From IMG/VR virus record IMGVR_UViG_3300037159_000004, positions 1 through 59,180 of that record: 59,180 nucleotides of DNA; one strand, given 5' to 3'. The position numbers and the translations under genes were made by a program. Positions 21,322-36,431 of this stretch are shown here, in pieces. The DNA is from a virus. The notes beneath the pieces were generated by a model. The model worked only from the letters and a program-made list of their open reading frames with translations, was not told where the DNA came from and did no database searches. Position 1 is the stretch's first letter. Each line of letters begins with the position of its first letter.

Positions 21322-21360
21322 TACAGTTCCAGCAATAACCCGGATACGGCCGGGTGTCAA
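21322..21360 (-). promoter_or_regulatory. Phage promoter element, copy 1
   Basis: Reading leftward: TTGACA, 17 bases, then TATTGC followed by TGGAACTGTA. The 16-base block from TATTGC on is shared with copies 2 and 4, and all but one base with copy 3. The -35 overlaps the stop of the gene at 21357. The spacer holds a small inverted repeat (CCCGG / CCGGG). Confidence 0.8.
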
Positions 21361-21629
21361 GGCACCTCGAATTGTTGTTTGAAGGATCGGTTGTTGGACG
21401 AATCTTCGTCCCTGAGACCTTGCATACTCTCAGCGAAGTCTTGGGTCGCGGCAGCGTGCCGGCTGTTGGGCGCCCTCGTCTCGTTGACGTACGCGCGCTC
21501 CGCTCGCTCGATGGCTTGCCGCTCCTCCGGCGGTAGGTTGGCAAGGTGGGCGGCGAACCGCGCGCCACGGTTGATGGCTACACCATCGAGCGTGGGCGCC
21601 AGTCGCCAGGGGTGATTTAACTTCGGCAT
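21357..21629 (-). CDS. Hypothetical protein, 90 aa
   Basis: The start is supported by an AGGGGA ribosome site. The product is charged with a short GVAINRGARFAAHLANLPPEE motif and a helical ERQAIERAERAY stretch; the tail is polar and disordered. Its stop codon lies within the -35 hexamer of a downstream promoter, so a new transcript begins right at its end. Function unknown. Confidence 0.65.
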   Translation of the reverse strand: MPKLNHPWRLAPTLDGVAINRGARFAAHLANLPPEERQAIERAERAYVNETRAPNSRHAAATQDFAESMQGLRDEDSSNNRSFKQQFEVP

Positions 21630-21748
21630 CTTCGAGTCCCCTGTTTAGATTTTGCGTGATCGTACTTGTCGCCCATCGCCTTACGCACGCGCACCTGCGC
21701 GGCGTAGAGACGGGCCTGCTGATATCGTTCGGCGAATGTTAGAGTCAT
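21617..21748 (-). CDS. Small basic protein, 43 aa
   Basis: A 43-residue frame begins MTLTFAERYQQARLYAA and contains VRKAMGDKYDHAKSKQGTRR. The ATG overlaps the preceding stop (ATGA) and follows a GCGAGG site. Similar MGDKY-containing mini-proteins are common in phage operons. Basic, possibly nucleic-acid binding. It overlaps the next gene by 13 bases. Confidence 0.6.
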   Translation of the reverse strand: MTLTFAERYQQARLYAAQVRVRKAMGDKYDHAKSKQGTRRCRS

Positions 21749-22245
21749 GACAACCTCGCGAGATTGTTCCAGCTGCTGAACTTGCCCCACACCGACGCGC
21801 TCCTCTCAGGGCGCGCGTTGGCGTCTACCTCGTACCAGCCAGCCGGCGCCGTGTGGTACTCGTAGGCGCCGACCAGCTCGTGCGGTACCGTGACGAACGA
21901 GTCGATGGCGTCGCGGCACGCGCGGAAGGTCTCCCCGCTCGACGTGAAGTCGTCCAGGAAGATCCACTTGCGGCCGAAGGTTCCCTCGATGATCGACCAC
22001 GAGTGACTGTTCTCGTTTGGCTTGCGCACGATCAGGAAGTTGCGCGACATCGCGCGGGCGAGGAGCGGCGCCACCAGTATCCCGGAGAGCCCGCGCGCCA
22101 CGAAGGTGTCGAACTCGATCCCCTGCAGGTTCCGGTAGGCCGCCGTGATGATGCCGGCGGGGTCGGTGTAGGCCCAGTCGCTGTACTGCTGCCCGTGGCG
22201 GCTCACCACCATCTCGGGCGGGTTCAGCGGTGCCACGGCGTTCAT
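21745..22245 (-). CDS. Phosphoribosyltransferase-like protein
   Basis: The 166-residue product carries a PRPP-loop-like motif, KWIFLDDFTSSGETFRA, with two acidic residues followed by a Ser/Thr-rich loop as in type I phosphoribosyltransferases. An upstream GIEFDTFVARGLSGILVAPLLA segment resembles the family's second beta-alpha unit with its flexible loop. A GTG-rich longer frame exists, but ATG 22245 overlaps the upstream stop (ATGA) and has CAGGTG before it. Possible role: nucleotide salvage, or a regulatory PRTase without catalysis. Substrate unknown. Confidence 0.7.
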   Translation of the reverse strand: MNAVAPLNPPEMVVSRHGQQYSDWAYTDPAGIITAAYRNLQGIEFDTFVARGLSGILVAPLLARAMSRNFLIVRKPNENSHSWSIIEGTFGRKWIFLDDFTSSGETFRACRDAIDSFVTVPHELVGAYEYHTAPAGWYEVDANARPERSASVWGKFSSWNNLARLS

Positions 22246-22826
22246 CGCGTCACCTGCCACACGTTCTCGACGCGGGTCCGGCGGTGCGGCGCCTTCGCGA
22301 TGCTCACCCACTCGCCGCGGGTGCCGGTGTCGACGAACTTGCGGCCGACGATTAGCACGTAGTGGCCGGTCACGTTGATGACGTAGGTGCCGGCGCGGTC
22401 CGGCCGCTGGCGGAGCCAGGCGGCGAGCGTGCACCCGACCAGCTTGACCGGGGTCATGGCGCTCCCGCCCATGTCTAGCCCGCTCGGCGGGCGCCACGCC
22501 TGCATACCGCTCTGCTTGTCGCCCCTCCACCAGGTATTGGAGACGTACTCGACAGCGTCTTCGACGGTCTCACCGACCCGGCGCCGGGCCTGGTAGTGCT
22601 TCGGCACCTCGATCTGCTTCACGTCGAAGCCGCCGACCCTGACCAGGGTCTTCAGCATCTCGTTGTTGCTCATGCCCTTGACGGCGCGGTCGCTGTTGGT
22701 CGCGAGCCGGACCTTGGCGGCAGCCTCAGAGGTGCTGCACCCGAGCAGCGCCGCGAGCACGAGCGGCCCGCAGTAGCGGTTACCATCCCGTTTCACGCTC
22801 TGGTGGGTAATTCGTCTGTTGTTCAT
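22242..22826 (-). CDS. Papain/C39-like cysteine peptidase-fold protein
   Basis: The sequence NRYCGPLVLAALLGCS has a candidate nucleophile Cys at the start of a helix, and later TYVINVTGHYVLIVGRKFVDTG supplies a His and an Asp in the order used by papain-like and C39 peptidases. At 194 residues it matches a single such domain. No signal peptide is seen, so it would act in the cytoplasm. It is coupled to the PRTase-like gene by ATGA. Catalysis is inferred from motif order. Confidence 0.6.
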   Translation of the reverse strand: MNNRRITHQSVKRDGNRYCGPLVLAALLGCSTSEAAAKVRLATNSDRAVKGMSNNEMLKTLVRVGGFDVKQIEVPKHYQARRRVGETVEDAVEYVSNTWWRGDKQSGMQAWRPPSGLDMGGSAMTPVKLVGCTLAAWLRQRPDRAGTYVINVTGHYVLIVGRKFVDTGTRGEWVSIAKAPHRRTRVENVWQVTR

Positions 22827-22848
22827 CGTCAGCTCCTAGTTTCAGTTT

Positions 22849-23376
22849 TCAGGCGGGAACTAAATTAGCACGGATCCTGGCCCACTTCAAGCGGTTCGCC
22901 TCGTTGCCGGCGTGCGGGTTCGGGTGCTTGGGGCCCAGCTTCACGCCCCGGGCCTTCAGGGCGGCCAGGGCCGCCTTGGTGCGCTGCGATATCATGGCGC
23001 GCTCTTTCTCCGCCAGCGCGGCGAAGAGGTGGAGCATGAAGTTATCCACATCTTTGCCCAGCTCAGTCACTATAAAATGGACCTTATGCACCATAAGACC
23101 GCTTATAGTGTGCACGTCCCTGGATAGGCGGTCCAGCTTGGACACAATTACTGGCCCCCCGAGCACCTGCGCCGCCGCCAGGGCGGCGATCAGCTGGGGC
23201 CGCTCCGTCAGGCCGTCCGAGACGCGTTTCCCGCTCTGAACTTCTGAGAAGGTCTCCTGTAGCTCGATACCTTCCCTGGCGCAGAACTGTTCTATGGCAG
23301 CCCTCTGAGCCTCCAACCCTAGGCCAGACTTCCCTTGTTCGTTGGTGGAGACGCGAACGTACGCTACAGCTCTCAT
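22849..23376 (-). CDS. Serine recombinase catalytic domain without a clear DNA-binding domain
   Basis: Resolvase motifs are clear: [10 protein letters not shown] with the nucleophile Ser near residue 10, then [13 protein letters not shown] and the long helix [25 protein letters not shown]. Only about 25 residues follow ([18 protein letters not shown]...), so the usual helix-turn-helix or the large-serine recombinase C-terminus is missing. It could act in DNA inversion or resolution with a partner, or be a truncated element. A homing-type HNH gene sits immediately upstream with an ATGA overlap. Confidence 0.85.
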
Positions 23377-23837
23377 ACATGCCTCCAGGTACGGCGCTCA
23401 CGTACCGACTTGATGACAGGTCGGGATACCTCGAAACGCCTCGCCAGCGCGCTGATGTTGTCAGCGGATGCACGAATGGCGACGACTTTGGCGTCATCCA
23501 GCTTCGCCAGTCCGTGCCGCGCGCCGTGGGCGGTTGTTCCGTGCCGCTGCTTGTCGCCGTGGTTCGCCTGCCTGGTCTTCCAGGCTAGATTCAGAATCCG
23601 GTCGTCGGTCTTGTCTCCGTTCTCGTGCGCCGCCTCATATCCAGGCGGGCACGGACCGCGAAAGGTCAGGAGCACTACACGAGATAGTCTCAGCGTTTTA
23701 CGCGCGCCGCGACCGTCATAGATTGTCACGCGAGAGTATCCGCTTCCGGTACAGCCGATAGACATCTTACCACGCGGACCGAACATCTCTCCGCGCCCGT
23801 TGACGTGATACGCCGGGAATCCCGGTATCTGCTTCAC
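23373..23837 (-). CDS. NUMOD4/HNH homing-type endonuclease
   Basis: The N-terminus [17 protein letters not shown] is a NUMOD4-like motif. The HNH part follows: [30 protein letters not shown] and an NxxN-H tail. A C-terminal helix-turn-helix-like segment ([19 protein letters not shown]) would bind DNA. Free-standing genes of this type are mobile in phage genomes. It is inserted between a small gene and the serine recombinase but keeps GTGA/ATGA coupling on both sides. Confidence 0.88.
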
Positions 23838-24067
23838 GGGCGCCGCTCCGGGACCAGCTCGAACCCGAACCGGGTGGATCGTACGCGGGTCCGGCCGCGG
23901 GGGAGGATCGCGGGCAGTAGCGCCCGGCTGTCACCCTCCTCAAGCGCCAGCGTCAGCGCGCTGTCGGCGCCGACGGAGAGCGTGATCTCTTCGGTGTAGG
24001 TGCCGTTCGGCTGGATGGTGCAGGTCGTCTCGACCTTGCAGCCCTGCGAGGTGAAGCGGACGGTCAC
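23834..24067 (-). CDS. Hypothetical beta-rich protein, 77 aa
   Basis: The GTG start overlaps the upstream stop (GTGA). The sequence alternates strands (VTVRFTSQGCKVETTCTI, TYTEEITLSVGAD) and ends in a basic segment. A longer upstream start is unlikely because it would overlap the preceding gene. No family recognised. Confidence 0.6.
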   Translation of the reverse strand: MTVRFTSQGCKVETTCTIQPNGTYTEEITLSVGADSALTLALEEGDSRALLPAILPRGRTRVRSTRFGFELVPERRP

Positions 24068-24282
24068 AGCGTCACCGAGAGACCGACCAGCATCAGTACC
24101 AGGTGACCGAGCTGGATGTCCAGGACACGAACCCACAGCTCGCAACCCTTCACGAACTCTTGCTCGTCGCGGATCGCGCTCAGCCAGTCGTACCAGGCAG
24201 TGATCGACTCGCGCGTCGGCTCCACCGACCGCTTCATGTCGTTAATCTCTTCCAGAATCTGCTTAATCTGCTTAATCGTCAT
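24064..24282 (-). CDS. Hypothetical helical protein, 72 aa
   Basis: A strong GGAG site precedes the ATG. The N-terminal helix (IKQIKQILEEINDMKRS) is amphipathic and the C-terminus is hydrophobic (LGHLVLMLVGLSVTL), perhaps a membrane anchor. Function unknown. Confidence 0.65.
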   Translation of the reverse strand: MTIKQIKQILEEINDMKRSVEPTRESITAWYDWLSAIRDEQEFVKGCELWVRVLDIQLGHLVLMLVGLSVTL

Positions 24283-24283
24283 T

Positions 24284-24499
24284 TTACTCTCCTACTAAAT
24301 CCAAGTTTCCAGTTTCAGGTTCCGATCTCTCCAGCAGATTCTGAAGCATGTTCACGAAGTTGTCAAGTTCGCACTCCAGGGGCTCGCTGCCGGTGTGCCC
24401 GCGGTCTAGACAGTACGATACGATGCACTCCATCGCCAGCCGCGACAGGTCTATGACCAGCTCCTTCTGCGTGAGGATATTGAAGCGGGGCGCGGTCAT
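24284..24499 (-). CDS. Hypothetical protein, 71 aa
   Basis: The start overlaps the upstream stop (ATGA). The protein is acidic and helical (LVIDLSRLAMECIVSYCLD, NFVNMLQNLLERS). No domain recognised. Confidence 0.6.
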   Translation of the reverse strand: MTAPRFNILTQKELVIDLSRLAMECIVSYCLDRGHTGSEPLECELDNFVNMLQNLLERSEPETGNLDLVGE

Positions 24500-24705
24500 A
24501 GACAGTCCGCGTAGTACGCGGCCCACTGGTCGTTCCAATATTCATCGTTGTCTTCGCGACACGGTGCGCAGAGCGCAACCCAGTTGAGTGTCGCATCGAC
24601 ATACGCGGTGCGCTGGTGATACCAGAATGCACCCTCACGCTCGCAGCGCTGGCACTTCACCAGCAGTCCAGCGTACAGATCAGCTTCGACCATCTTCCGT
24701 GTCAT
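24496..24705 (-). CDS. Zinc-ribbon-like protein, 69 aa
   Basis: Two Cys pairs, CQRC and CAPC, are separated by 25 residues containing FWYHQRT, the spacing of a zinc ribbon. The tail is acidic and aromatic (DEYWNDQWAAYY). It is coupled by ATGA on both sides. Possible DNA- or protein-binding mini-regulator; no function known. Confidence 0.65.
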   Translation of the reverse strand: MTRKMVEADLYAGLLVKCQRCEREGAFWYHQRTAYVDATLNWVALCAPCREDNDEYWNDQWAAYYADCL

Positions 24706-24914
24706 GGCTTGATCCCCGCGGCCTCGAACTGAGTGTAGGTGACGAAGAGCTGGTTCAGGCCGCGCGCAAACTCTACGTCGTCCAGGTAGTACAGGTCCGG
24801 CACCGAGCCCGTGATCGAGTTGCCGATGATCTGCGCGAGCCGTAGGTTGGGGAAACGCTCGGCGAGTAGCCCGAGCGTCTCCACCGTGTTCTTACGCAGC
24901 TGCTTGCTGTCCAC
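24702..24914 (-). CDS. Hypothetical protein, 70 aa
   Basis: GTG at 24914 has a GAGGAG site eight bases upstream within the preceding gene; ATG at 24938 would add eight Ser-rich residues. The sequence NTVETLGLLAERFPNLRLAQIIGN and a YYLDDVEFARGLNQLF helix suggest a compact helical fold. Similar small proteins occur in other phage operons. Function unknown. Confidence 0.6.
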   Translation of the reverse strand: MDSKQLRKNTVETLGLLAERFPNLRLAQIIGNSITGSVPDLYYLDDVEFARGLNQLFVTYTQFEAAGIKP

Positions 24915-25125
24915 GGAGGAACTCCTCGTGCTGCTCATGGTAGTAACGGTGCCGCGAGCGCACCAACTGCTGGTGATGCTTCGCCTGCATCGGGAGCCCG
25001 GCCCCGAGCAGCTGCACCACCTTGGCCCGGTCCTGCCTGTCGAGCCGGTGCGCGCGGCGCTTCGCTCGGTTGACTCCGATGTCGAGCGGCTTCCCGCCCT
25101 CCTTGCTGACGTAGATGTATCGCAT
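24892..25125 (-). CDS. Hypothetical basic protein, 77 aa
   Basis: A TGAGG site precedes the ATG. The protein is rich in Arg, His and Gln (NRAKRRAHRLDRQDR, HHQQLVRSRHRYYHEQ), suggesting nucleic-acid binding. It follows the orphan helicase fragment by one base and overlaps the next gene by 23 bases. Confidence 0.55.
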   Translation of the reverse strand: MRYIYVSKEGGKPLDIGVNRAKRRAHRLDRQDRAKVVQLLGAGLPMQAKHHQQLVRSRHRYYHEQHEEFLRGQQAAA

Positions 25126-25126
25126 G

Positions 25127-25402
25127 TTACCTCACATTCTTGGGTGGTGAAGGGATCAGGATCAGCTCCGACTTCGCGCGGGTCGCGGCGACGTACCGGA
25201 GATTTTTCTCTTGCTGCATCTGCCAGGGCTGCCGGGCCCACTTGCTGACGAAGTCGTAGTTGAGCCAGAAGACTCGGTTCGCTTCCAGGCCCTTCGCCTT
25301 GTGCACCGTCGCGAGGACGATGGCGTCGGCCTTGTTCTGGAAGAGGCGCTCGATGATGCGGATCAGCTCAGGTATCGATCCGCCGCACCTCTTTCGCGAT
25401 CT
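25127..25402 (-). pseudogene. UvrD/Rep-family helicase C-terminal fragment without a start codon
   Basis: This frame encodes helicase motif V (IVLATVHKAKGLEANRV) and motif VI (QEKNLRYVAATRAKSELIL), the characteristic end of a UvrD-like superfamily 1 helicase. The frame opens just after a stop and contains no ATG, GTG or TTG before motif V, and motifs I to IV are not found upstream. The first 35 bases overlap the gene at 25368. It is best read as a 5'-truncated remnant, although reinitiation from an unusual start or a sequence error that split a longer gene cannot be excluded. Confidence 0.65.
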
Positions 25403-25598: not shown

Positions 25599-25607
25599 GA
25601 ATTTCTC

Positions 25608-25811
25608 CTATGAAGTAAACACGCCAGCGACTACTGGCTTCTCGCTGTCGTGGTGATCCCAACCTTGGGCGTTGAAGTCGACGATGTCGGAAACACTCCA
25701 CGCCTCTGCCTGAGTGATGGCGTCGTGCAGGGATTCGGCCTTGATGTCGATGCCGACACTCAACTTTAGGTCCACCATCACATTAAAAGATTTTTGCTTT
25801 GACTTAGCCAT
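25608..25811 (-). CDS. Hypothetical protein, 67 aa
   Basis: A small alpha/beta protein: strands NVMVDLKLSVGIDI, a helix with LHDAITQAEAW, and an acidic turn. This pattern resembles small phage proteins with a ferredoxin-like half fold. Its start overlaps the sigma-like gene by eight bases. No function known. Confidence 0.6.
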   Translation of the reverse strand: MAKSKQKSFNVMVDLKLSVGIDIKAESLHDAITQAEAWSVSDIVDFNAQGWDHHDSEKPVVAGVFTS

Positions 25812-26568
25812 GTCCGTAATCCCTCACTTGTTGTGCAATCTCGATCTTGCGCGACTCGGTGCTCTTCACCGCCTCGCGCACCTCTAGGTCTTCGATGTCC
25901 ATCCGCGTCGAGCGCTTGTCCGCGGGCATGAAGCCCTCGAACCACATGCAGCGCCAGCAGGGAGGGCAGTCTTTGCCGGCGGGAGGTGCGAAGTCTAGCT
26001 GCTCCAGCGCCATATCGATCTCCGACAGCTTATCGTTAGCGTCGTCCGACGACGTTGTGGCGGCTGTCTGCACCAGCCGCTTTGAGCGGGACTCGTCAGG
26101 CACCAGCCGCGACAGCTGCTTTATACGCGCTCTAGCGAAATAGACCGCGTCATGAGAGAACCCTCTCTCCATTATCTCTTCCCGCGTGAACCCTCTCATG
26201 ATCAACAGTGCGATCTTTTTGTCTACGGGGGTCAGCGCGTTGATCAGTGCGTTGGCAGACGATTCGGCGGCGACGATGTCGTACGTTGGGTCTCCCTCAC
26301 CCATGTTCTCTATCGATTCGTCCGACGTCGGCAGCTCGTTGCGTCGCAGATCCTGGTACGCGTTGCGTACTGTGTTCATGAACCATGTCTCCAGCGTTGT
26401 CGTCAGGCTGTAGTTCGCCCGATTCTCCCAGCACCACAAGAGCGCTGCCGATATCACGTCGTCCCGGTCCGCCTTCTGTAGGCCCCGGCCGTGTAGAAAT
26501 TTGTTGGCCTGCTTCCCGGCGGCGCGCGCCAGCTGCATCGTGAAAACCTCTGACGCGTTCTGCGACAT
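25804..26568 (-). CDS. Sigma-70/ECF-like transcription factor
   Basis: Residues about 10-75 resemble sigma region 2: DRDDVISAALLWCWENR then a LETWFMNTVRNAYQDLRR helix, the pattern used for core RNA polymerase and -10 recognition. Residues about 110-150 resemble region 4: LTPVDKKIALLIMRGFTREEIMERG, a helix-turn-helix. The C-terminal 90 residues are unusual and contain CPPCWRCMWFEG, a possible zinc site or anti-sigma-like element. It is a good candidate to direct host RNA polymerase to the repeated promoter element in this genome, but that link is inference. Confidence 0.65.
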   Translation of the reverse strand: MSQNASEVFTMQLARAAGKQANKFLHGRGLQKADRDDVISAALLWCWENRANYSLTTTLETWFMNTVRNAYQDLRRNELPTSDESIENMGEGDPTYDIVAAESSANALINALTPVDKKIALLIMRGFTREEIMERGFSHDAVYFARARIKQLSRLVPDESRSKRLVQTAATTSSDDANDKLSEIDMALEQLDFAPPAGKDCPPCWRCMWFEGFMPADKRSTRMDIEDLEVREAVKSTESRKIEIAQQVRDYGHG

Positions 26569-26900
26569 CAGAGGGACCCCTTCGTGATGGTCGTCATCGC
26601 GATCCGCTTCGCGAGCGTCTCTGTCTCAAGGTCCGTGATCGCCTGCGCCTTCAGGATGATGGACGCGATCTGTGCCTGCAGCGGCTCGGGCAGCTCGCGC
26701 AGCTCGGGCATCTGCATCAGCTCGCGCATCCCGGTCCACAGATTCTTCGCCAGCTTCGCTTGGACTGAGTAGGCGTTGCAGAGCGCGGTCAGATCCCGCG
26801 ATCCGTCCCCTACCCAGTTGAGGCGCAGGTCGTGGCGCCCGGCCTGCAGCTGTATCAGGCGGGAGAGCGCGTCCCCGCTGTTTGCAATTAGATCAGCCAT
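26568..26900 (-). CDS. Hypothetical helical protein, 110 aa
   Basis: The protein is almost entirely alpha-helical (ALSRLIQLQAGRHDL, LTALCNAYSVQAKLAKNLW, ELPEPLQAQIASIILKAQA). Its stop and the sigma-like start overlap by one base, so the two may be expressed in equal amounts and could interact. No family recognised. Confidence 0.6.
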   Translation of the reverse strand: MADLIANSGDALSRLIQLQAGRHDLRLNWVGDGSRDLTALCNAYSVQAKLAKNLWTGMRELMQMPELRELPEPLQAQIASIILKAQAITDLETETLAKRIAMTTITKGSL

Positions 26901-29478
26901 TGGTCAAGTCCCCGTTCGTGCGTTGCAGTTTCCACCTCACGCCGAACCTGTTGTGTCCGTCGTGCATCAGCTTCAGGTTGCTCCCGATCTTATCCTTCGC
27001 GGCGCGCAGCCAGTACCCGACCTTGATCGGGTTGTTCGGCTCCGCGCACCCCATCTGCATCAGCGCGTCACTCATCTCGTTGTTAGGGTCCGAGAGGCTC
27101 CCTACAACGCGCGACATGTCGCCAGCGGTGAATGGTCGATCACCAAAGTTTGCTACCAGCTTCTCGAAGAGTGGCCCAACGTTCTTAGTTTCGTCGTCAG
27201 TCTCGTTGATCTGCGTGATGACCGGGTCCGCCATACCGAGCCAGATCAACGGATCGCGCGTGAGCCTCGACCATCGCTCGAAGCTGGGCAGCGTGACCGG
27301 CATCTTCTCTTTGCCGTCGGTGGCAATGTACGCCTTGATGATCGTGAGCGCATCGACCAGCAGCTGCGCCCGGCGGGCCATGACGTACGATCTCGGCTCC
27401 GCGATCCTGAAGACGCGGTCGCGTAGGTTCTCGGTGTTGGCGTCGAGCCGCACCACAATACTACGACGCGCCAGGTCCGAGACCGGCGTCATGTTGTTGC
27501 CTGACGCGACCAGCACCGTCTTGTTCGGTATCGCGCTGGTCACGCTCTCCCCTAGCTTGCGATCCTTCCAGACAGCGCTCGTGATGAACGCGGAGAGTGT
27601 TGGGGACCGTACCTTCACACCGTCGGGCACGTTGTCGAACCATATCGAGCGGTCGCCTGCCATGAGGCACGCGTAGATCGACTTGCGTAGCTCGTCTTCG
27701 TCGGCCACCCAGGGCCGCATCGCGGGCTCGGTGCCGTGCACGATCCGCGCGGCCATCTCTTGTAGCGTCGACTTGCCGGTCCCCTGCATCGGTGCGTCGT
27801 AGAAGTACATCGGGCACCGGTCCATCGCGAGCCGTGCGGCCTCGGCCAGGATGTGAGACACGAACGCGCTCTCCGATGCTTCCTCTTTCCAAGGGAACTC
27901 GTTGAACGGTTCGCGCAGCCGTTCGAGTGCGGCGAGCGCATCGTCACGGGTTGGGCTCTCGGGTATTGGTGGAAACTCGATGCTCGGCACGTACAGCGTG
28001 CGGCTCATAGGGTCGTAGCCCGGCGTGTCGCAGATGCTACCATCTAGCCGTAGGAACGGCGAGCGGGCGATGGCGTCGAGCGGCCTCAGCCTGGTCCAGC
28101 CGCCGCGGTCCATGAACGCGCTGATGTGCTCTACGCTCGGTGCGGTTGGCACCCAATCTTTTGCTCTGCCGTCATACCTGACGAAGTCACACAGCTCACC
28201 GAACCTGGTCCGCACCCAGCCCTGCGTCGCGGGGATCAGCATCACAGCGTCAGCGTTGCGTTGTATCGCGCCGTCGTCGTGCGCCTCGCTCGTGCGTACC
28301 AGGTGCGAGCCCTGCGTATATACGTGCGGGGTGAGTATCTGCTCCAGCTGCTTCACGATGTTCGAGAACTCGGCGCCACTCAGGTGGATCAGCGGACGTG
28401 CGCCGCTGTCATGTACCGCGGGCGGTACGACGTCGACCAGGTCGCTGTGCGGCTCGGACTCGGGGACGGGCGTGAACGCGTTGACGTCCGCGACCCGCAG
28501 CATGCCGCGCTGCCGGGCCATGTTGAAGATGTGCCGGTAGTCGGTACGGGGTACCTGATTGATGTGGGCGTCCCACCACAGGGCTGCGGCGTTGGGCTCA
28601 TAGCCGACAGCCTTGCGGCTGAAGTCCCGCCATAGCTGCTCTGCGGGCCGGTCGCTGTTATGAAGCGACAGCAGTCCGTAGCCTATCTCGCTCCAGGTAT
28701 CATTGTCGGACGCCTTGTCGAGCATGAAACGCAGGCAGGCGAGTAGGTGTTGCCAGTTGTCTTCGCTGATCGTCATCAACACTTCCGTCGTCACGTCCGC
28801 CGACGCCTTCGCCAGTGCAGTCTGGATTACGGGCGTCGTGCCAGTCTTCGCATAGTTGGTAGTCAGTGTCGACCAAATCTGATCCAGCTGAGCCAGCGTG
28901 ATGGTCGGTATCGTCGAAGGCAGCTCGGGCGTCCATCGGTAGCGCACACCAGAGGAGTGCGTACCACACGCAACGAACTGCTGGCCGTCGGCTAAAAGTT
29001 CTATCGCTGGGCCGCGCGGATTGTCGTCGAGTTTGATCTTGCGTTTCTTGCATGGTTCCTCCATCCGAAACATCATCAGAACTTTGCTGCTGTTCTCGCG
29101 CTTACGTATTGCCAGCGTGTCGAAGGCGCCAGCAATAATATACGCCACGCTGGCCGCTATACGCGGATCCTCGATGTCGATGTCGAACGCGTAGATGCCG
29201 CTAACGGGCCCGGTCCGTACGCACAGGTTCAGGCGCCGGTCGCTCGACCAGTACGCTATCTCGCTCGGCGCTATCTCACGCTTCTGCCATCCCGTCAGCC
29301 CGTGCGCCTCACCGCGCCCGTTGAACATGGAGGGGATCTTGCCTATCTTACCCTGGAGCGCGGACCCCGCCTGCACAGCGACGTCCAGCGATGCCGGCAC
29401 GCACGGCAGCAGATTCGCACCGAGCCCCAATACGAAGTCGAAGTGACTCCATTCATCCAATGTTGCGCCGAGTGACAT
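26893..29478 (-). CDS. Primase-helicase (prim-pol domain plus D5/VirE-like SF3 helicase)
   Basis: The N-terminal 200 residues resemble the bifunctional primase/polymerase domain: a GLTGWQK segment and a YAFDIDIEDP acidic motif (residues about 97-105), then GPAIELLADGQQFV. A middle domain (about 280-350) resembles PriCT. The C-terminal part has Walker A APMQGTGKST (about 560), an IWFDNVPDG Walker B-like strand, and VLVASGNNM with an arginine-finger region DLARRSIVVRLD, as in D5/DUF5906 superfamily 3 helicases. ATG 29478 overlaps the upstream stop (TAATG). It probably primes and unwinds DNA for the family A polymerase. Confidence 0.88.
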   Translation of the reverse strand: MSLGATLDEWSHFDFVLGLGANLLPCVPASLDVAVQAGSALQGKIGKIPSMFNGRGEAHGLTGWQKREIAPSEIAYWSSDRRLNLCVRTGPVSGIYAFDIDIEDPRIAASVAYIIAGAFDTLAIRKRENSSKVLMMFRMEEPCKKRKIKLDDNPRGPAIELLADGQQFVACGTHSSGVRYRWTPELPSTIPTITLAQLDQIWSTLTTNYAKTGTTPVIQTALAKASADVTTEVLMTISEDNWQHLLACLRFMLDKASDNDTWSEIGYGLLSLHNSDRPAEQLWRDFSRKAVGYEPNAAALWWDAHINQVPRTDYRHIFNMARQRGMLRVADVNAFTPVPESEPHSDLVDVVPPAVHDSGARPLIHLSGAEFSNIVKQLEQILTPHVYTQGSHLVRTSEAHDDGAIQRNADAVMLIPATQGWVRTRFGELCDFVRYDGRAKDWVPTAPSVEHISAFMDRGGWTRLRPLDAIARSPFLRLDGSICDTPGYDPMSRTLYVPSIEFPPIPESPTRDDALAALERLREPFNEFPWKEEASESAFVSHILAEAARLAMDRCPMYFYDAPMQGTGKSTLQEMAARIVHGTEPAMRPWVADEDELRKSIYACLMAGDRSIWFDNVPDGVKVRSPTLSAFITSAVWKDRKLGESVTSAIPNKTVLVASGNNMTPVSDLARRSIVVRLDANTENLRDRVFRIAEPRSYVMARRAQLLVDALTIIKAYIATDGKEKMPVTLPSFERWSRLTRDPLIWLGMADPVITQINETDDETKNVGPLFEKLVANFGDRPFTAGDMSRVVGSLSDPNNEMSDALMQMGCAEPNNPIKVGYWLRAAKDKIGSNLKLMHDGHNRFGVRWKLQRTNGDLTNG

Positions 29479-30194
29479 TAGTTTGCCTGGTGCGGTGTCG
29501 TGAACTTGCCAACGATCCAGCCCGGGGTCGACCATGGGGCGCTGTCATCTTCGGCTAGGTGGGTGACGTCAACCTTGTCGCCGGGCTTGAACTGGTGAAC
29601 CAGCCCCGTGCATAGGTCCCCCATGAATATAGGACGATGAAAGAAGATCGGCTCACTCAAATCGGCGGGCGAGAAGAGATGGTGCGCGAACCGTGCGTTG
29701 CATACGTGCGTGTGATAGCTGCCGACCACGTTGCCGGGCTGATCATCGATATGGACGTGCTGGGCGGCGAAGCTGGTGTTTGGTGGCAGCGCTACGTAGC
29801 CGTTCGTGGTTTTGATGATCTCACCACCCCACTCGTACCAGTTGGCGGTCGGCTTCAGCGCGATTGCTTTAAGACCCTCGATGGCCGCCTCCTCGATGGT
29901 CGGGTAGCCAGGCTGCGTAGAGTGCGCCACATCGTCCGAGGATGGTGCTGGGGTAGGGTCCACCCCCTGGCACTGTACCAGCTCACCGTGCGGCGCGACG
30001 AAGACTGCGGTCGGACAGCCTGCATCGTTTCGCTTGAGGTTGTCTTGTGCCCAGTTCAGGTCCCCACCGTGCGCCCGTGCCTTGGTCTGCGCTAACTGGA
30101 CCTTGCCGATCATATAGAGCGCGGTCTCTCTGATGGATAGCCCGGCGAGGAGTAGCGCGGCGAGGAGCAGCGCGGGGAGAAAGAGTTTCTTCAA
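29478..30194 (-). CDS. Membrane-anchored JAMM/DUF4329-like protein (copy 1)
   Basis: TTG at 30194 follows AGGAG by six bases. A signal-anchor helix (FLPALLLAALLLAGL) comes first. The C-terminal domain has SYHTHVCNARFAHHLFSPADL, matching the HxH-x10-SxxD zinc motif of JAMM metallopeptidases, with candidate upstream Glu residues (WYEWGGEI). DUF4329 proteins share this YHTH core. The anchor implies the domain lies in the periplasm. It is the first gene after promoter copy 2 and is followed by the primase-helicase. A related gene is at 33909. Enzyme activity is untested. Confidence 0.7.
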   Translation of the reverse strand: MKKLFLPALLLAALLLAGLSIRETALYMIGKVQLAQTKARAHGGDLNWAQDNLKRNDAGCPTAVFVAPHGELVQCQGVDPTPAPSSDDVAHSTQPGYPTIEEAAIEGLKAIALKPTANWYEWGGEIIKTTNGYVALPPNTSFAAQHVHIDDQPGNVVGSYHTHVCNARFAHHLFSPADLSEPIFFHRPIFMGDLCTGLVHQFKPGDKVDVTHLAEDDSAPWSTPGWIVGKFTTPHQAN

Positions 30195-30226: not shown

Positions 30227-30265
30227 ACAGTTCCAGCAATAACCCGGATCCTGGATATTGTCAAG
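30227..30265 (-). promoter_or_regulatory. Phage promoter element, copy 2
   Basis: Leftward: perfect TTGACA, 17 bases, TATTGC then TGGAACTGTA. It lies about 33 bases before the gene at 30194. The six bases before TATTGC (CCGGGT) are the same as in copy 1, and a GTGTTTT heptamer in the leader is at the same distance as in copy 1. Confidence 0.8.
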
Positions 30266-30273
30266 ATCCGCAG

Positions 30274-30595: not shown

Positions 30596-30631
30596 GGTTG
30601 TTCTCCTGTGGATGGTAATGCACAAGGGTTT

Positions 30632-30868
30632 TTAGCCCGCCGCGGGCTTCGTTGCGGCATCAGAGGTGGAACATCCGGGCGTCATGCAGACCTTTGCGTA
30701 TTGGTGCAACGTCATGCGACCGCAGTCGGGGCACCACCCAGCATCCTCGCCAGCCTGTAACTCAGGCGAGCAATTGTGCGTCTTGATGTTCTCGGCGTAC
30801 CGCTCGGCTTGCGTCTCGTAGCCATACGGGTTGAACGCCCGCGACCAGCAACGCTCACAACTTGCCAT
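30632..30868 (-). CDS. Cys-rich zinc-binding-like protein, 78 aa
   Basis: ATG at 30868 is preceded by GGAG. The product has CERC, a HNC, WCPDCGRM and VCMTPGC clusters, suggesting one or two zinc sites. Its C-terminus SDAATKPAAG is encoded by DNA identical over 29 bases to the 3' part of the gene at 31402. Function unknown. Confidence 0.65.
   Translation of the reverse strand: MASCERCWSRAFNPYGYETQAERYAENIKTHNCSPELQAGEDAGWCPDCGRMTLHQYAKVCMTPGCSTSDAATKPAAG
30636..30664. repeat. 29-bp direct repeat, copy A
   Basis: Identical to 31436-31464, exactly 800 bases away. In both places it encodes the same C-terminal peptide on the minus strand in two otherwise unrelated genes. It contains a small GCCCG/CGGGC hairpin. 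Confidence 0.9.
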
Positions 30869-30885
30869 GTTCCACTCCGGTGTCA

Positions 30886-31344: not shown

Positions 31345-31401
31345 GTTCTCAATCGGTTTTCGGTTCGTATCGCATCTTAATTTCCGCAAGGCGTGCTGGC
31401 G

Positions 31402-31707
31402 TCACTTCGCTTCTCCATCGTCATGTGAGCCCGTACCCGCCGCGGGCTTCGTTGCGGCATCAGACTGAAAGTCAAAATGGGTCGCGCTGCGCTTCTCCTC
31501 CCAAGGGTCGGCCTCGGCAAGTTCGGCATCGACACGCTCTTTCATCATTCCCATGAAGTCCTTGATGGTATCGTCCCCGGTCGAGAATCCGCTCGTGGCT
31601 TCGTAGCCGTCGCTCTGGCGGAAAATGCTGTAGTAGACCAGCACGTCCCCGCCCATTGACCGCTCGCGATGCACGTCAATGTCGTAGCCACGGTAGGACG
31701 CTTTCAT
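31402..31707 (-). CDS. Hypothetical protein, 101 aa
   Basis: It begins MKASYRGYDIDVHRERS, a pattern seen in small phage proteins with a short beta-sheet then a helix (DTIKDFMGMMKERVDAEL). The C-terminal 20 residues, starting SDAATKPAAG, come from a 29-base segment repeated in the gene at 30632. Its ATG overlaps the upstream stop (ATGA). Function unknown. Confidence 0.65.
   Translation of the reverse strand: MKASYRGYDIDVHRERSMGGDVLVYYSIFRQSDGYEATSGFSTGDDTIKDFMGMMKERVDAELAEADPWEEKRSATHFDFQSDAATKPAAGTGSHDDGEAK
31436..31464. repeat. 29-bp direct repeat, copy B
   Basis: Identical to copy A at 30636-30664 and in the same orientation and reading frame. This copy is followed by ten more codons before the stop. 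Confidence 0.9.
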
Positions 31708-32233: not shown

Positions 32234-32235
32234 GA

Positions 32236-32415
32236 TCAGCTCCTAGTTTCTGGATCCGAGTCTGGATCCTTGTGTGGGTATTGTACACCGAACCGCTGCA
32301 GTTGCAAGTCAGTGAAGATCACGTTCCGGATCCGCTGCTGGGCCGCGTACTGCGCCCACTCGGGCAGCTCACTCAGCGCGTCGACGTAGTCGTCCCAGCT
32401 CCTGATCTGGCTCAC
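32236..32415 (-). CDS. Hypothetical protein, 59 aa
   Basis: GTG overlaps the upstream stop (GTGA) and the stop lies two bases before the next ATG. The sequence SWDDYVDALSELPEWAQYAAQQRIRNVIF is a typical helical phage mini-protein start, followed by a polar tail. The frame fills an otherwise empty gap. Confidence 0.6.
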   Translation of the reverse strand: MSQIRSWDDYVDALSELPEWAQYAAQQRIRNVIFTDLQLQRFGVQYPHKDPDSDPETRS

Positions 32416-33116
32416 GGGTCGAGCCCCTTGCCGCTGTCGCCCTGCTCCGGGAGATCGCAGTGGTAGCGCACGCGCGTGAGGTGATTACGGGCGTTGATGA
32501 GGCGATTAGCCTGCATCGCGATGAACTCTTCGTTCACCTTGGCGGTGGCCCGCAGATTCTGCAGCTCGCTCTCGTGCTTGGCGAGCGCGGCCTGGCCCAC
32601 GTAGTTGTCGAGCGGACCCTTCATCTCGTCCAGCTCAGTCAGAGCGCGTGCGGCTGTGAGGCGCATCTTGATCTCGGCGGCCTCCGCGTTCACACACCGC
32701 TCCATCAGCTTCTTGGTGCGGATGTTCGTAGCCCACTCACTGAACGTCATCTTCGGTAGATTCTGAAAGTTGCCTGGGCCGCCGGACATGCGGTACCGCG
32801 GCGGGCAGCTCACCCATACCTTGCTGTGCTCGCGCCGGCCGTACTCCACCTCGATGGAGTCCCACGACATCGCTGGTGGGATAGCAGACTGAGGGAAGAT
32901 CGACTCGCTCACCAGGTCGCCGCGGACCATCTTGCGCGGCGGTTGCTTGAGCGGCTCGACATAGAGCCCCTTCGCGGCCTGATTGTCGTACGCTTGCTGC
33001 ATGCTCGCACCGAACTCGGTCGTGCGGCAGGTGTTGCAGCGCTGGTCGGTGTTGTTGCCGCTGAACCATTGGAATGGCTGCTTGCATCTCGAACAAGGAA
33101 CTGTGTAGAGACCCAT
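32412..33116 (-). CDS. Zinc-ribbon protein with long C-terminal helices, 234 aa
   Basis: The N-terminus VPCSRCKQPFQWF and QRCNTCR form a zinc ribbon. The middle has WVSCPPRYRMSGGPG and a Trp motif; the C-terminal 100 residues are helical and charged (NAEAAEIKMRLTAARALTELDE), probably a coiled coil. It could be a DNA-binding regulator or scaffold. Function unknown. Confidence 0.65.
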   Translation of the reverse strand: MGLYTVPCSRCKQPFQWFSGNNTDQRCNTCRTTEFGASMQQAYDNQAAKGLYVEPLKQPPRKMVRGDLVSESIFPQSAIPPAMSWDSIEVEYGRREHSKVWVSCPPRYRMSGGPGNFQNLPKMTFSEWATNIRTKKLMERCVNAEAAEIKMRLTAARALTELDEMKGPLDNYVGQAALAKHESELQNLRATAKVNEEFIAMQANRLINARNHLTRVRYHCDLPEQGDSGKGLDP

Positions 33117-33117
33117 G

Positions 33118-33597
33118 TTATATAAACCTCGCGTCTTTGATGTTTCGTGGAAGTTCTAGCTTGAAGTGTATCGAGCCCGGGGTGCCGCCGCGCCTGCGCA
33201 TCGTGCTCTCCAGCACAGAGCGCGCAAAGTCGTCCTGGTGCTGCAGCGTCGCGGGATCGTCGGTGTAGATCTCCGACTCGACGCTGTGCTGCTCCTGCTC
33301 GCCAGTGTCTTTGATTGTCCAGGTCGCATCGTAGCGCACCAGCTCGTGCGGGTCGATGTACGCGCCGTTCTCGCCGACGGAGGTGACCACGAACTGCTTG
33401 CAGCGACGTATCACGAGCGGGTCGTGTACTCTCTCGAACGTGAGCACGTCCCCCACGTTGAGCCCTGGCTCAGCGCCTAGCGTCCAGCCGGCGCGCGGCG
33501 GTAGGAAGAACCTGCGCGCAACGTCCGGCACGATGATGCCGGCCGCCGTGACAGCTGCAGCTGCGCCTAGCAGCTTGAATAGATCACGACGGTTCAT
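33118..33597 (-). CDS. Tat-signal protein, 159 aa
   Basis: The N-terminus MNRRDLFKLLGAAAAV carries a twin-arginine motif (RRDLFK) followed by a hydrophobic segment and IVPDVARRFFLPPRAGW, the common pattern of phage Tat-signal proteins. The remaining domain is beta-rich (VIRRCKQFVVTSVGENGAYI) with a YDATWTIKDTG segment. It would be folded in the cytoplasm and exported, or anchored, through the host Tat system. Tat proteins with FLPPRxGW are frequent in phages, but their role is unknown. Confidence 0.75.
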   Translation of the reverse strand: MNRRDLFKLLGAAAAVTAAGIIVPDVARRFFLPPRAGWTLGAEPGLNVGDVLTFERVHDPLVIRRCKQFVVTSVGENGAYIDPHELVRYDATWTIKDTGEQEQHSVESEIYTDDPATLQHQDDFARSVLESTMRRRGGTPGSIHFKLELPRNIKDARFI

Positions 33598-33802
33598 TGC
33601 GCTTATCTCCGAGCCTGCGGCTCACCTTGGCTAGCTCAGCCTTGCAGCTCACCAGCTGCGCCTCAAGCAACGCCGACCGTGCGCGCTCGCGTACCGCCTG
33701 GCTTATTTGTTGTTTGAAGGTAGCGATTCGCTTGTTGCGCTCACCCAGCTCGATGGTCAGCTGCCGGCACATCTCTTTCCAGTCGACCAGCTCGTCGCTC
33801 AT
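33584..33802 (-). CDS. Coiled-coil protein, 72 aa
   Basis: It begins MSDELVDWKEMCRQL and is a continuous charged helix (GERNKRIATFKQQISQAV, LEAQLVSCKAELAKV). The ATG overlaps the upstream stop (ATGA). Its end overlaps the Tat-signal gene by 14 bases. Likely a small oligomeric helper; function unknown. Confidence 0.65.
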   Translation of the reverse strand: MSDELVDWKEMCRQLTIELGERNKRIATFKQQISQAVRERARSALLEAQLVSCKAELAKVSRRLGDKRNEPS

Positions 33803-33912
33803 AGGAGGCCGTCGATGTAGCCGTCGCGCCACTTTTGGGGCCAGTGCATGAACGGGCGCGCGTACCGGTTCCGGTCGTAGCGGCCAAGCCAATAGAATAT
33901 CCAGTAGCTCAT
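33799..33912 (-). CDS. Tiny aromatic protein, 37 aa
   Basis: The frame MSYWIFYWLGRYDRNRYARPF is aromatic and basic. ATGA overlaps occur at both ends. It is probably membrane-associated. Too short for a confident family. Confidence 0.6.
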   Translation of the reverse strand: MSYWIFYWLGRYDRNRYARPFMHWPQKWRDGYIDGLL

Positions 33913-34382
33913 TTGACACCCCTCGGGGTGTAGGTGATGATTGTCCCGGACCGGACCACCCCGATGAATGACCTGACACGCATGCTGTTCGCTGTCTGGC
34001 GGTCCATCTCTGAGACCAGCCCCGACTCATCGTTCGTCAGGCTCCTCGGGTGCGTGTGGTAGAGCGCGACCAGCGTCGCGTTCCCCGGTATCCGTAGCGT
34101 GAAGGTCCGGATCTCCCGGTCGCTCCCTGAGCTGACCGGGGCCGTGTAGAAGTAGGCGCCAGCGCGCAGGTAGATCCCGCCACCGTACTCGAACACGATT
34201 GAGCGGTCCTCGCTGTCACGGATCGCGGCCTGGGCGGCCTGGGCGGCGTTACTGTAACCCTCCGGCGCCTCATCGGCGCGGGCGGGCTCGAAGAGTGCGA
34301 GCATCAGCCACACGAACAGCGCCCACATGATCAGGCTGACCGGTAGCGCGAACTTGAGGCCCTCGAAGAATTTGTTGCTCAT
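33909..34382 (-). CDS. Membrane-anchored JAMM/DUF4329-like protein (copy 2)
   Basis: ATG 34382 follows GGAG by six bases. A membrane helix (LPVSLIMWALFVWLMLALF) ending in EPARADEA looks like an anchor or a signal peptide with a possible cleavage site after ARA. The domain has IVFEYGGGIYLR, then LVALYHTHPRSLTNDESG and LVSEMDRQTAN, i.e. HTHP followed by Asp/Ser as in JAMM/DUF4329 proteins. It resembles the protein at 29478 in layout but is shorter. Two such proteins in one phage suggest a periplasmic or cell-wall role. Confidence 0.68.
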   Translation of the reverse strand: MSNKFFEGLKFALPVSLIMWALFVWLMLALFEPARADEAPEGYSNAAQAAQAAIRDSEDRSIVFEYGGGIYLRAGAYFYTAPVSSGSDREIRTFTLRIPGNATLVALYHTHPRSLTNDESGLVSEMDRQTANSMRVRSFIGVVRSGTIITYTPRGVK

Positions 34383-34402
34383 GTCAGTCTCCAGTATCAG
34401 GT

Positions 34403-34633
34403 TTAAGATCGTAGGCGTCTGCGCTGTTGGTCGGGTGACTCGAACATACTGCCCTTGTGCACCACGTCGTCGCAGGCGGCGCGTGCATCCTCCCACGCCT
34501 CGGCTGTCGCCTGCGCGGTCTGTACCGATACGGGGCGTGACACGATCCGGCCTGCCATCGGGTCGGCGGGCTTGCGGCGCATTAGCGCCCTGAGGGCGAG
34601 GATGGCGAGGGCGGCGAGGATGAGGGTGTGCAT
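34403..34633 (-). CDS. Small membrane protein, 76 aa
   Basis: It starts MHTLILAALAILALRALMRRK, a membrane helix with a basic inside edge, followed by a helix (TAEAWEDARAACDDVVH) and a basic tail. The ribosome site is weak, so the start is less certain. Confidence 0.55.
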   Translation of the reverse strand: MHTLILAALAILALRALMRRKPADPMAGRIVSRPVSVQTAQATAEAWEDARAACDDVVHKGSMFESPDQQRRRLRS

Positions 34634-34668
34634 CTGGGTGTGTCCGTGTGGCTGTCTGTGGCTGAACT

Positions 34669-34911
34669 CTACAGCATCCTCGGCTGCATCGCGTTGCGGT
34701 AAGCTACAATATGATCGGACAATTTGCGGGTACGCGCGCTGTCGTAGGCTAACAAATCCCCGTTCGGTGCTGCGCGCCATACTTGGACTAGTTCCTTAGT
34801 TAGGGCGGCGTGCTTGACGCCAGCGGCGTACATTTTGCGCGCCTGGCTAGCCAGCCAACGGCCGCCGATATCGCCTGAGCGGTCTGTGATTGCGTAGAGG
34901 CTGTCTTTCAT
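34669..34911 (-). CDS. Hypothetical protein, 80 aa
   Basis: ATG 34911 has GGGAG six bases upstream. It contains ARKMYAAGVKHAALTKELVQVW and LLAYDSARTRKLSDHI. About 45 bases upstream a TAATAG follows TTGCAG by 19 bases, a weak promoter candidate. The 150 bases between this gene and the next (34912-35063) hold nothing else recognisable. Confidence 0.6.
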   Translation of the reverse strand: MKDSLYAITDRSGDIGGRWLASQARKMYAAGVKHAALTKELVQVWRAAPNGDLLAYDSARTRKLSDHIVAYRNAMQPRML

Positions 34912-35063
34912 CTCAATCTCCCGATCAGTTGTTGGTGAGTGCAAGGCTATTATCGGATTTAATTTAGGGGGCTGCAATAGTGTAACGAGACTTGCGTCAC
35001 AGATCGTTGAAATATTCCCAACCGATCACTTCGCCTAGACAACGTTACAAATGACAGCGTAGA

Positions 35064-35753
35064 TCATGACAATAGCTCCTTGAACTTAGCGTCTACTGCT
35101 GCCTGCAGCCGATCACGGCTTGATTGTTCGTGTTTCGATCTAGCGTCGGCGGCGTGGGCGACGACGGCGTCGGCGGCGGCGGCGTCGGCGGCGGCGGCAG
35201 CGGCGGAGGCGGCGGCGGCGTGGGCGGCGTCGGAGGCGGCGGCGGCGGCGGCGGCGTCGGCGGCGGAGGCGGCGTAGGCGGCGTCGGCGGCGGCGTCGGC
35301 GTAGGCGTAGGCGGCGGCGTAGGTGGCGGCGTCGACGGCGACGGCGCGGGCGCCGTCGTAGGCGTAGGCGGCGGCCCTAGCCTTTACCCTAATCGACTCA
35401 TCCCCTGTTTCCAGATATCGCTTGACGACATCTGGCGCTTTCCATAGGTGAATCACCGACAGCGCCGAGGCTCGAGCATCTGCTCGCAGCAAGTCAGTTG
35501 CATCGAATCGCGCGACAATGCGGCGCTTAGTCGCACAGAGTTTGTCCGATTGTTCGACGATATCACCATCGATATCGACCAAGCAGAGCGTAGCGCCTGG
35601 CGCGAAGCGAACCGCATCCGCTACATGCTTGGACGCATGGTAGCCTTGGACACAGCAAATCGGCTCGCCCTTGAAGATCAGCCATTCGCCGTCCGTGGGG
35701 ATCGGTGACCCATCACGTAAGGTGGATGAGACAAAGTGATATGCGCGGATCAT
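35064..35753 (-). CDS. DUF7666-like protein with Ala/Asp/Tyr repeat tail
   Basis: The N-terminal 125 residues have the pattern AYHFVSSTLRDGSPIP, then CCVQGYHASKHVADAVRF, VVKRYLETGDESIR, which fits the DUF7666 family of phage and mobile-element proteins. From about 130 to 205 the sequence is a run of AADAA and AYAADA units, encoded by GCG/GTC-rich DNA on the plus strand that reads as (GGCGGC)n with variations. The tail would form a long, Ala-rich helix. Such repeat tails vary between phages, probably through slippage. Function unknown. Confidence 0.75.
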   Translation of the reverse strand: MIRAYHFVSSTLRDGSPIPTDGEWLIFKGEPICCVQGYHASKHVADAVRFAPGATLCLVDIDGDIVEQSDKLCATKRRIVARFDATDLLRADARASALSVIHLWKAPDVVKRYLETGDESIRVKARAAAYAYDGARAVAVDAATYAAAYAYADAAADAAYAASAADAAAAAAASDAAHAAAASAAAAAADAAAADAVVAHAADARSKHEQSSRDRLQAAVDAKFKELLS

Positions 35754-36091
35754 GACGCGTACAACCAGCTCGTGCTATAGGCGGCCACATCAAAGGCCGC
35801 GCCCGGCTTGAAGTACGGGTGCTGCTCACCCACCACCGCATCGACCGTGGCGCGCACACCCTTGGCCGGCGCCTTGAAGCCTGCGGCCTTGTAGATGTTG
35901 CCCTCGGCGTCGACGAACGCGTAGACGCTGCCCGTCATCTCACCGTAGCCGCTGAGGAGGATGACCTTGGCATACTTCGGGCCCTGACGCAGTACGAAGT
36001 TCACGCGGTTCGGGCCGAACTGACGCTCGTTGTAGCCGGTCCGCGCGATGCGAGCGTTCAGGTAATCGACTAACTCTTGCGCCTTGCTCAT
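35750..36091 (-). CDS. Hypothetical phage protein, 113 aa
   Basis: ATG 36091 has an AAGGAG site and lies only about 23 bases after promoter copy 3. The protein has a helix (KAQELVDYLNARIA) and a compact beta-rich part: FVLRQGPKYAKVILLS and GSVYAFVDAEGNIYKAAG. This pattern is seen in short phage early proteins. It is coupled to the next gene by ATGA. Confidence 0.7.
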   Translation of the reverse strand: MSKAQELVDYLNARIARTGYNERQFGPNRVNFVLRQGPKYAKVILLSGYGEMTGSVYAFVDAEGNIYKAAGFKAPAKGVRATVDAVVGEQHPYFKPGAAFDVAAYSTSWLYAS

Positions 36092-36110
36092 ACCTTCATC
36101 TCCTTGGGCC

Positions 36111-36149
36111 TTCAGTTCCAGCAATAACTCGGTTCAGGTCTGGCGTCAA
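36111..36149 (-). promoter_or_regulatory. Phage promoter element, copy 3
   Basis: Leftward: TTGACG, 17 bases, TATTGC then TGGAACTGAA. The following gene's ribosome site is only about 16 bases after TATTGC, which places the start of transcription inside the conserved block and argues against reading GGAAC as a -35. Confidence 0.78.
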
Positions 36150-36186
36150 CAGTATACCGAGCCAGCGGCCCGTGATGTGATGCGCG

Positions 36187-36369
36187 TCACAGTTCTTGGT
36201 TGCGGTCTCTGCGTCCAGCGGCCGCACGCCGCGCCTTGGCGCGCCGCGCCCGATACCACAGCCGATGCTGCTCGGTCACGTACGCGCCTTGATCGAGCGG
36301 GCTTGCGACCGCCGCCTCAGTCTGCCAGCTGGCTACTAGCCGGCGCCCTGGATGTCTCTGTGTGCTCAT
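36187..36369 (-). CDS. Small basic protein, 60 aa
   Basis: AGGGGCGAG precedes the ATG. The product is basic and Ala/Arg-rich (YRARRAKARRAAAGRRDR), likely nucleic-acid binding. It is the first gene of the leftward unit, right after promoter copy 4. Confidence 0.6.
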   Translation of the reverse strand: MSTQRHPGRRLVASWQTEAAVASPLDQGAYVTEQHRLWYRARRAKARRAAAGRRDRNQEL

Positions 36370-36392
36370 CTCTCGCCCCTGTTAGTTGGGTG

Positions 36393-36431
36393 TACAGTTC
36401 CAGCAATAACACACCCACCAGCCCGTGGCCA
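36393..36431 (-). promoter_or_regulatory. Phage promoter element, copy 4
   Basis: Leftward: TGGCCA (4 of 6 to TTGACA), 17 bases, then TATTGCTGGAACTGTA. The -10 side is fully conserved while the -35 is the most divergent of the four, so it may be weaker or need an activator. Confidence 0.7.

What the first reader, a model, noticed from the sequence alone, without database searches (positions are those of the whole stretch)
21322..36431. Family of four phage-specific promoters with an extended conserved -10 side
Copies at 21322-21360, 30227-30265, 36111-36149 and 36393-36431 all read leftward and all have exactly 17 bases between the -35 and TATTGC. The -35 is TTGACA, TTGACA, TTGACG and TGGCCA, while TATTGCTGGAACTG is invariant. 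Each sits just upstream of a well-placed gene start. Conservation running through the expected start site is more than host sigma-70 needs and suggests a dedicated sigma factor or a regulator binding over the start site.
Basis: seen in the sequence. Interest (0 to 1): 0.85.

Follow-up and report, generated by a model that had tools for sequence, protein, structure and literature searches.

The report
Four matching phage early-gene promoters
One uncultivated phage starts four of its early gene blocks from four look-alike signals; the look-alike part is private to this phage, so it is probably the ordinary host-read start signal in a lineage-specific version, although the phage does carry its own candidate sigma factor.

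Summary
The invariant core is slightly longer than reported (GTTATTGCTGGAACTG, 16 nt). All four copies lie on the early strand, 21-37 nt upstream of start codons, in a 59-kb uncultivated phage with a P22-type portal.

Relatives do not support a conserved phage-specific promoter. The core is absent from nine relatives sharing the early region (about 402 kb) and from 36 further viral contigs apart from two chance-level hits. Yet six relatives keep TTGAC[AC] at the orthologous spot upstream of the MNHAKIAA gene, mostly with sigma70-type -10 boxes (TACTCT, TAATTT).

Unexpectedly, the phage encodes a divergent ECF-like sigma factor (25804-26568, -), present in all nine relatives. However, its predicted -35-reading helix is hypervariable, and two sister phages with different helices keep the same early promoters, which argues that this sigma does not read them.

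Best reading: host-sigma70-type early promoters whose -10/start core became uniform in this lineage, perhaps under a shared phage regulator. The sigma reading stays open. No transcription start has been mapped and the host is unknown.

The parts
36395..36431 (-). Site C: TGGCCA-N17-TATTGCTGGAACTG, upstream of the first early gene (ATG 36369)
   Evidence: poorest -35 of the four
36113..36149 (-). Site D: TTGACG-N17-TATTGCTGGAACTG, upstream of the MSKAQ gene (ATG 36091)
   Evidence: relative G2 has TTGACC-N17-TACACT upstream of a gene starting MSKAQ
30228..30264 (-). Site B: TTGACA-N17-TATTGCTGGAACTG, upstream of the gene before the primase (TTG 30194)
   Evidence: relatives G1, G4, G7, G8 have TTGAC[AG]-N16-TANNNT shortly upstream of the primase
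21324..21360 (-). Site A: TTGACA-N17-TATTGCTGGAACTG, upstream of the MNHAKIAA gene (ATG 21286)
   Evidence: orthologous promoter-like sites in G1, G3, G7, G8, G9, G11
36187..36369 (-). 60-aa early gene downstream of site C, no family match
35750..36091 (-). Early gene downstream of site D (DUF7717 / phrog_5014)
29478..30194 (-). Early gene downstream of site B, hydrophobic N terminus, precedes the primase
20879..21286 (-). Early gene downstream of site A (MNHAKIAAALHAL...), present in relatives
26893..29535 (-). Primase-type replication protein, marker used to find relatives
25804..26568 (-). Candidate phage ECF-like sigma factor, 254 aa (region 2 about 30-77, region 4-like about 107-155, conserved CPPCWRC tail)
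37171..37184 (+). TTTTTTGCACTAAC: candidate late promoter/leader element upstream of the first late gene
   Evidence: same place in G6, G8, G21; variants in G2, G7, G9

Best explanation
The four sites are early promoters of one transcription programme. Shown: a sigma70-type -35 (three of four), an exact 17-nt spacer, an invariant 16-nt block covering the -10, the discriminator and the expected start, a gene start just downstream, and TTGAC-type promoters at orthologous places in relatives. Inferred: the host RNA polymerase with its housekeeping sigma reads them from the start of infection. Inferred: the invariant block is this lineage's version of a looser group pattern (TA-N2/3-CTG, often followed by TGTA), spread or made uniform within the genome and kept uniform because one trans-acting factor, the host holoenzyme with or without a phage regulator over the start site, acts on all four. 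The phage's own ECF-like sigma more likely serves other, probably late, promoters.
For: Four exact copies vs 0.01 expected, early strand only. The window and G1, G3, G7, G8, G9, G11 keep TTGAC[AC] upstream of the MNHAKIAA gene, places chosen by orthology and not by motif. Relatives' -10 boxes are mostly TANNNT, several with an extended -10 TGn. 11 of 17 promoters of relatives share TAN2-3CTG (not independent, and picked with a TTGAC and TA..T filter). Site C lies upstream of the first early gene. G7 and G8 share A/B promoter elements although 7 of 9 codons of the sigma's recognition helix changed, none synonymously. That helix is the least conserved part of the sigma across 11 phages (mean pairwise identity 0.29) while TTGAC persists.
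Against: TATTGC is a weak sigma70 -10 (C at the important last position) and all four copies have it. Site C has a poor -35 (TGGCCA), so the core seems to matter more than sigma70 would need. Promoter-like sites without the motif exist on the same strand (32307 TTGCAA-N16-TACAAT; 22890 TTGAAG-N17-TAATTT), so other promoters could make the phage sigma first. In G5 no TTGAC-type site stands at the A position. No transcript data; host unknown.
Confidence: 0.5

Rival explanations
1. The phage's ECF-like sigma (25804-26568) reads the invariant 16-nt core, as the phage sigmas phi32_gp36 and SaPh711_gp47 read their own promoters; the four sites are middle promoters.
For: A sigma-like gene exists and is in all nine relatives and a bog MAG contig; PDB profile hit to ECF sigma 5uxx E=0.0026; phrog_1740 sigma in 7 of 10 members, best 1.4e-5; ECF sigma structures lead the Foldseek lists. 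The core is invariant although one -35 is poor and the -10 is weak for sigma70. phiEco32 promoters show such a single invariant element (PMC8948821).
Against: The helix that would read the -35 is hypervariable while TTGAC is kept; G7 and G8 differ in that helix and in residues just after region 2 but share A/B promoters. Window and G8 are nearly identical in the conserved end of region 2 yet their cores differ. Site C heads the early cluster.
Confidence: 0.25
2. The core is mainly an operator: a phage repressor or activator binds GTT-ATTGCTGG-AAC over the -10 and start and switches all four promoters together.
For: Conservation runs through the discriminator and expected start while spacer and downstream diverge; outer GTT/AAC with a central GC form an imperfect inverted repeat (seen in sequence); a lineage-specific uniform change is what repressor-operator coevolution gives.
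Against: 8 of 14 symmetric positions is weak and not shared by relatives' versions; no DNA-binding repressor was recognised among the early genes, though many are unknown.
Confidence: 0.15
3. No extra factor: recent copying of one promoter within the genome alone explains the identity.
For: 21337 and 30241 also share their leader (69% over 26 nt); relative G9 has a promoter pair shared over -35, spacer and leader.
Against: The other pairs are identical over the 16-nt core only and near random on both sides, which points to selection on the core.
Confidence: 0.07

Closest known systems
phiEco32 and 7-11 phages with a phage-encoded sigma (phi32_gp36, SaPh711_gp47; PMC8948821)
   Same: Podovirus-type phages with early and late genes on opposite strands, a divergent sigma, early genes from host-sigma70 promoters; the sigmas diverge together with their promoter sequences
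   Different: Here the repeated core is on early-strand genes and comes with TTGAC; no promoter of this sigma is known; no convincing tblastn relative of this sigma among 50,697 phage records
Bacterial sigma70 promoters, including extended -10
   Same: TTGACA, 17-nt spacer, TA-starting -10; TGn before the -10 in several relatives
   Different: -10 is TATTGC in all four copies; identity continues to the expected start
Start-Associated Sequences (SAS) of cluster K mycobacteriophages (PMC3203893)
   Same: Short asymmetric repeat, one orientation, upstream of non-structural gene starts, private to a phage group
   Different: SAS lies 3-7 bp from the start codon and contains the Shine-Dalgarno; here the core ends 21-37 nt upstream, at the -10/+1 of a promoter
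ECF sigma factors (RpoE/NepR 5uxx, SigH)
   Same: Region 2 then region 4-like helices; best profile and fold hits
   Different: Extra conserved C-terminal tail of about 90 aa with CPPCWRC; very low identity; hypervariable recognition helix

Membership tests
sigma70-type promoter | -35 close to TTGACA | tested here: met
   TTGACA, TTGACA, TTGACG; the fourth, TGGCCA, only 4/6
sigma70-type promoter | spacer of about 17 nt | tested here: met
   exactly 17 in all four
sigma70-type promoter | -10 TATAAT with A at position 2 and T at position 6 | tested here: inconclusive
   TATTGC: A2 present, T6 absent in all four; relatives mostly TANNNT
sigma70-type promoter | transcription starts about 7 nt downstream of the -10 | not testable with these tools
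   no transcript data for this phage
phage-sigma promoter (phiEco32-like) | phage encodes a sigma factor | tested here: met
   (sequence and a modest-confidence fold only)
phage-sigma promoter (phiEco32-like) | promoter changes together with the sigma's DNA-reading parts | tested here: not met
   G7 vs G8: helix changed, A/B promoters the same; one pair of phages only
phage-sigma promoter (phiEco32-like) | phage sigma holoenzyme transcribes from the site | not testable with these tools
   needs in vitro transcription
ECF sigma factor (25804-26568) | region 2 with core-binding and -10 segments | tested here: met
   phrog_1740 in 7 of 10; Pfam Sigma70_r2 in 4 of 10 members but below the curated cut-off
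ECF sigma factor (25804-26568) | region 4 helix-turn-helix | tested here: inconclusive
   helices 114-124, 129-134, 139-155 predicted at pLDDT about 80; no Pfam region 4 hit
Start-Associated Sequence | repeat includes the ribosome-binding site 3-7 bp from the start codon | tested here: not met
   core ends 21-37 nt upstream of the start codons

The most novel reading that the evidence does not exclude
This uncultivated phage group uses an ECF-like sigma whose -35-reading helix is under diversifying change, so that sister phages read different late promoters (a private transcription code, perhaps against co-infecting relatives), while each lineage keeps its own uniform set of early start-region elements.
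Probability: 0.25. Interest if true: 0.7.

Novelty: new variant of a known kind. Interest (0 to 1): 0.45.

Why it matters
Repeated promoters within a phage genome and phage sigma factors are both known kinds. What is useful here is a group of ten or more related genomes in which early promoters stay in place while their sequence shifts lineage by lineage, together with a sigma-like gene whose predicted DNA-reading helix changes fastest. That gives a direct way to ask which promoters a phage sigma reads and why its specificity diverges.

Tried and rejected
The full promoter pattern with exact core matched no viral contig. GGAAC inside the core as the -35 of an ECF promoter was rejected: the -10 would fall at the start codon at 36091. 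The late-side element AAAC-N-GTTTAG as a sigma regulon was rejected: one or two copies per genome. TTTTTTGCACTAAC gave no second good copy per genome. Nucleotide search of cultured phages gave no match. The one genome-collection scan gave one locus, a bog MAG contig. The full-length sigma model was low confidence (pLDDT 61); trimming to 161 aa gave 69 and again mainly sigma hits, none below E=0.001. Paper searches for a phage ECF sigma with a hypervariable helix found nothing on point.

Full report
Observation. The invariant block is GTTATTGCTGGAACTG, 16 nt; the -35 is TTGACA, TTGACA, TTGACG and TGGCCA; the spacer to TATTGC is 17 nt in all. Four matches to the whole arrangement were found where shuffles give 0.01. 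All lie on the early (-) strand, and each is followed by a start codon: 36369, 36091, 30194 and 21286. Flanks are not conserved except between 21337 and 30241.

Genome. The window is a 59,180-base virus record. It has a P22-type portal and coat, leftward replication genes (helicase, DNA polymerase, exonuclease, primase) and rightward structural genes. No cultured phage is close: best coat identity is about 32%. 138 viral contigs encode a relative of its coat protein, as does one contig of a MAG labelled Solirubrobacterales from a bog, which is only weak evidence about the host.

Relatives. Nine contigs with 71-76% identical primase were fetched and extended. The core is absent with up to 2 mismatches, and only four scattered hits with 3 mismatches appear in about 402 kb of relatives (460,976 bases with the window). 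The full pattern matches no viral contig. In 37 further records the core with up to 2 mismatches gives four hits, two in the bog MAG and one each in two viral contigs, against six for the reversed control pattern. Yet the promoter positions are kept. Upstream of the MNHAKIAA gene, G1, G3, G7, G8, G9 and G11 carry TTGAC[AC] followed by TACCTC, TACTAC, TACTCT, TACTCT, TAATTT and TACTCT; G5 is an exception. Across 17 promoters of relatives, 11 have TA-N2/3-CTG. That set was chosen with a TTGAC and TA..T filter and contains orthologues, so the P value printed there overstates the case. Several relatives continue with TGTA a few bases on (TACTCTGGATTTGTA, TACTCTGGAAAGTGTA), so the window's TATTGCTGGAACTGTA looks like one version of a group pattern; this last point is by eye.

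Sigma gene. Gene 25804-26568 (-) looks like a divergent sigma: Pfam Sigma70_r2 E=0.0048, below cut-off; phrog_1740 sigma in 7 of 10 members, best 1.4e-5; PDB profile hit to ECF sigma 5uxx, E=0.0026; AlphaFold2 models of modest confidence whose best PDB matches are ECF sigmas (5uxx probability 0.95-0.98) at E about 0.04. It is in all nine relatives and the bog MAG contig. Region 2 is strongly conserved, but the region-4 recognition helix is the least conserved stretch (0.29 mean pairwise identity; positions 140, 141, 143, 144 at 0.07-0.22). Between sister phages G7 and G8, codons 139-147 hold 7 nonsynonymous changes and no synonymous ones, against 9 nonsynonymous and 35 synonymous elsewhere. 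Their A promoters (TTGACA-N16-TACTCTGAAAATGTAGC) and B promoters (TTGACG-N16-TACTCTGGATTTGTACC) are the same. If this sigma read those -35 boxes, they should have changed. A small recombination patch could also explain the helix change; the argument about the promoters holds either way.

Interpretation. I read the four sites as host-read, sigma70-type early promoters in a lineage-specific uniform version (confidence 0.5). What sigma70 alone does not explain is the weak -10 (TATTGC) and the identity to the expected start; a shared phage regulator is a reasonable but untested addition. The phage-sigma reading stays open (0.25): the first early genes could be middle genes, since sigma70-like sites without the motif exist at 32307 and 22890. 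The nearest functional precedent is the phiEco32/7-11 group, where early genes use host sigma70 and late genes use a phage sigma with its own promoter consensus (PMC8948821). This phage may work like that group; it is not shown to be a member.

Limits. No transcript, no host, no protein test. Relatives are uncultivated contigs, and the sample of promoters is small. The natural experiment rests on one pair of phages.

Noticed in passing
window 25804-26568 (-); L130 13420-14175; L131 12926-13681: ECF-like sigma candidate with hypervariable recognition helix; G7 vs G8 differ by 7 nonsynonymous and 0 synonymous changes in 9 codons. Conserved CPPCWRC tail of unknown role.
   Followed up: yes
L130 5301 (-), L132 5648 (-), L282 8628 (-): G7, G9 and the bog MAG contig have late-strand TTGAC..GGGGC..TARNNTTGCCCTAA sites, and their sigma helices look alike (K[RK]x[IV]D[ED][AT]HQ); no such site was seen in the others. 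Three cases only; the MAG site lies about 2 kb further into the late region.
   Followed up: partly
window 37171-37184 (+): TTTTTTGCACTAAC followed by a GGCGGAGGGG leader before the first late gene; same element in G6, G8, G21 and variants in others: candidate late promoter.
   Followed up: partly
window 36700-37160: Conserved non-coding block between early and late genes: CATCGTCGCGGCG..AAACTGTTTAG (the latter twice), ATCACC/ATCGTCACC repeats, and TGACCGCAGTGCAGCA on the other strand; origin-like or regulatory.
   Followed up: partly
window 38155-38206: Two 18-bp near-palindromes (GACAGG-N6-CCTGTC type) immediately before the ATG at 38218.
   Followed up: no
window 32307 (-) and 22890 (-): Sigma70-like sites without the motif (TTGCAA-N16-TACAAT; TTGAAG-N17-TAATTT); shared leader sequence AAACTAGGAGCTGA near 22829 and 32236.
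   Followed up: partly
window 30636-30664 and 31436-31464: Identical 29-bp repeat encoding SDAATKPAAG near the ends of two small early proteins.
   Followed up: no
L178 / L282 (PLES01000005.1): Contig binned as a Solirubrobacterales bog MAG is a phage of this group (coat 97%, sigma present): misbinned phage or a hint of the host.
   Followed up: partly
window 22849-23376 (-): Small serine recombinase (resolvase domain only); no clear evidence for integration.
   Followed up: no
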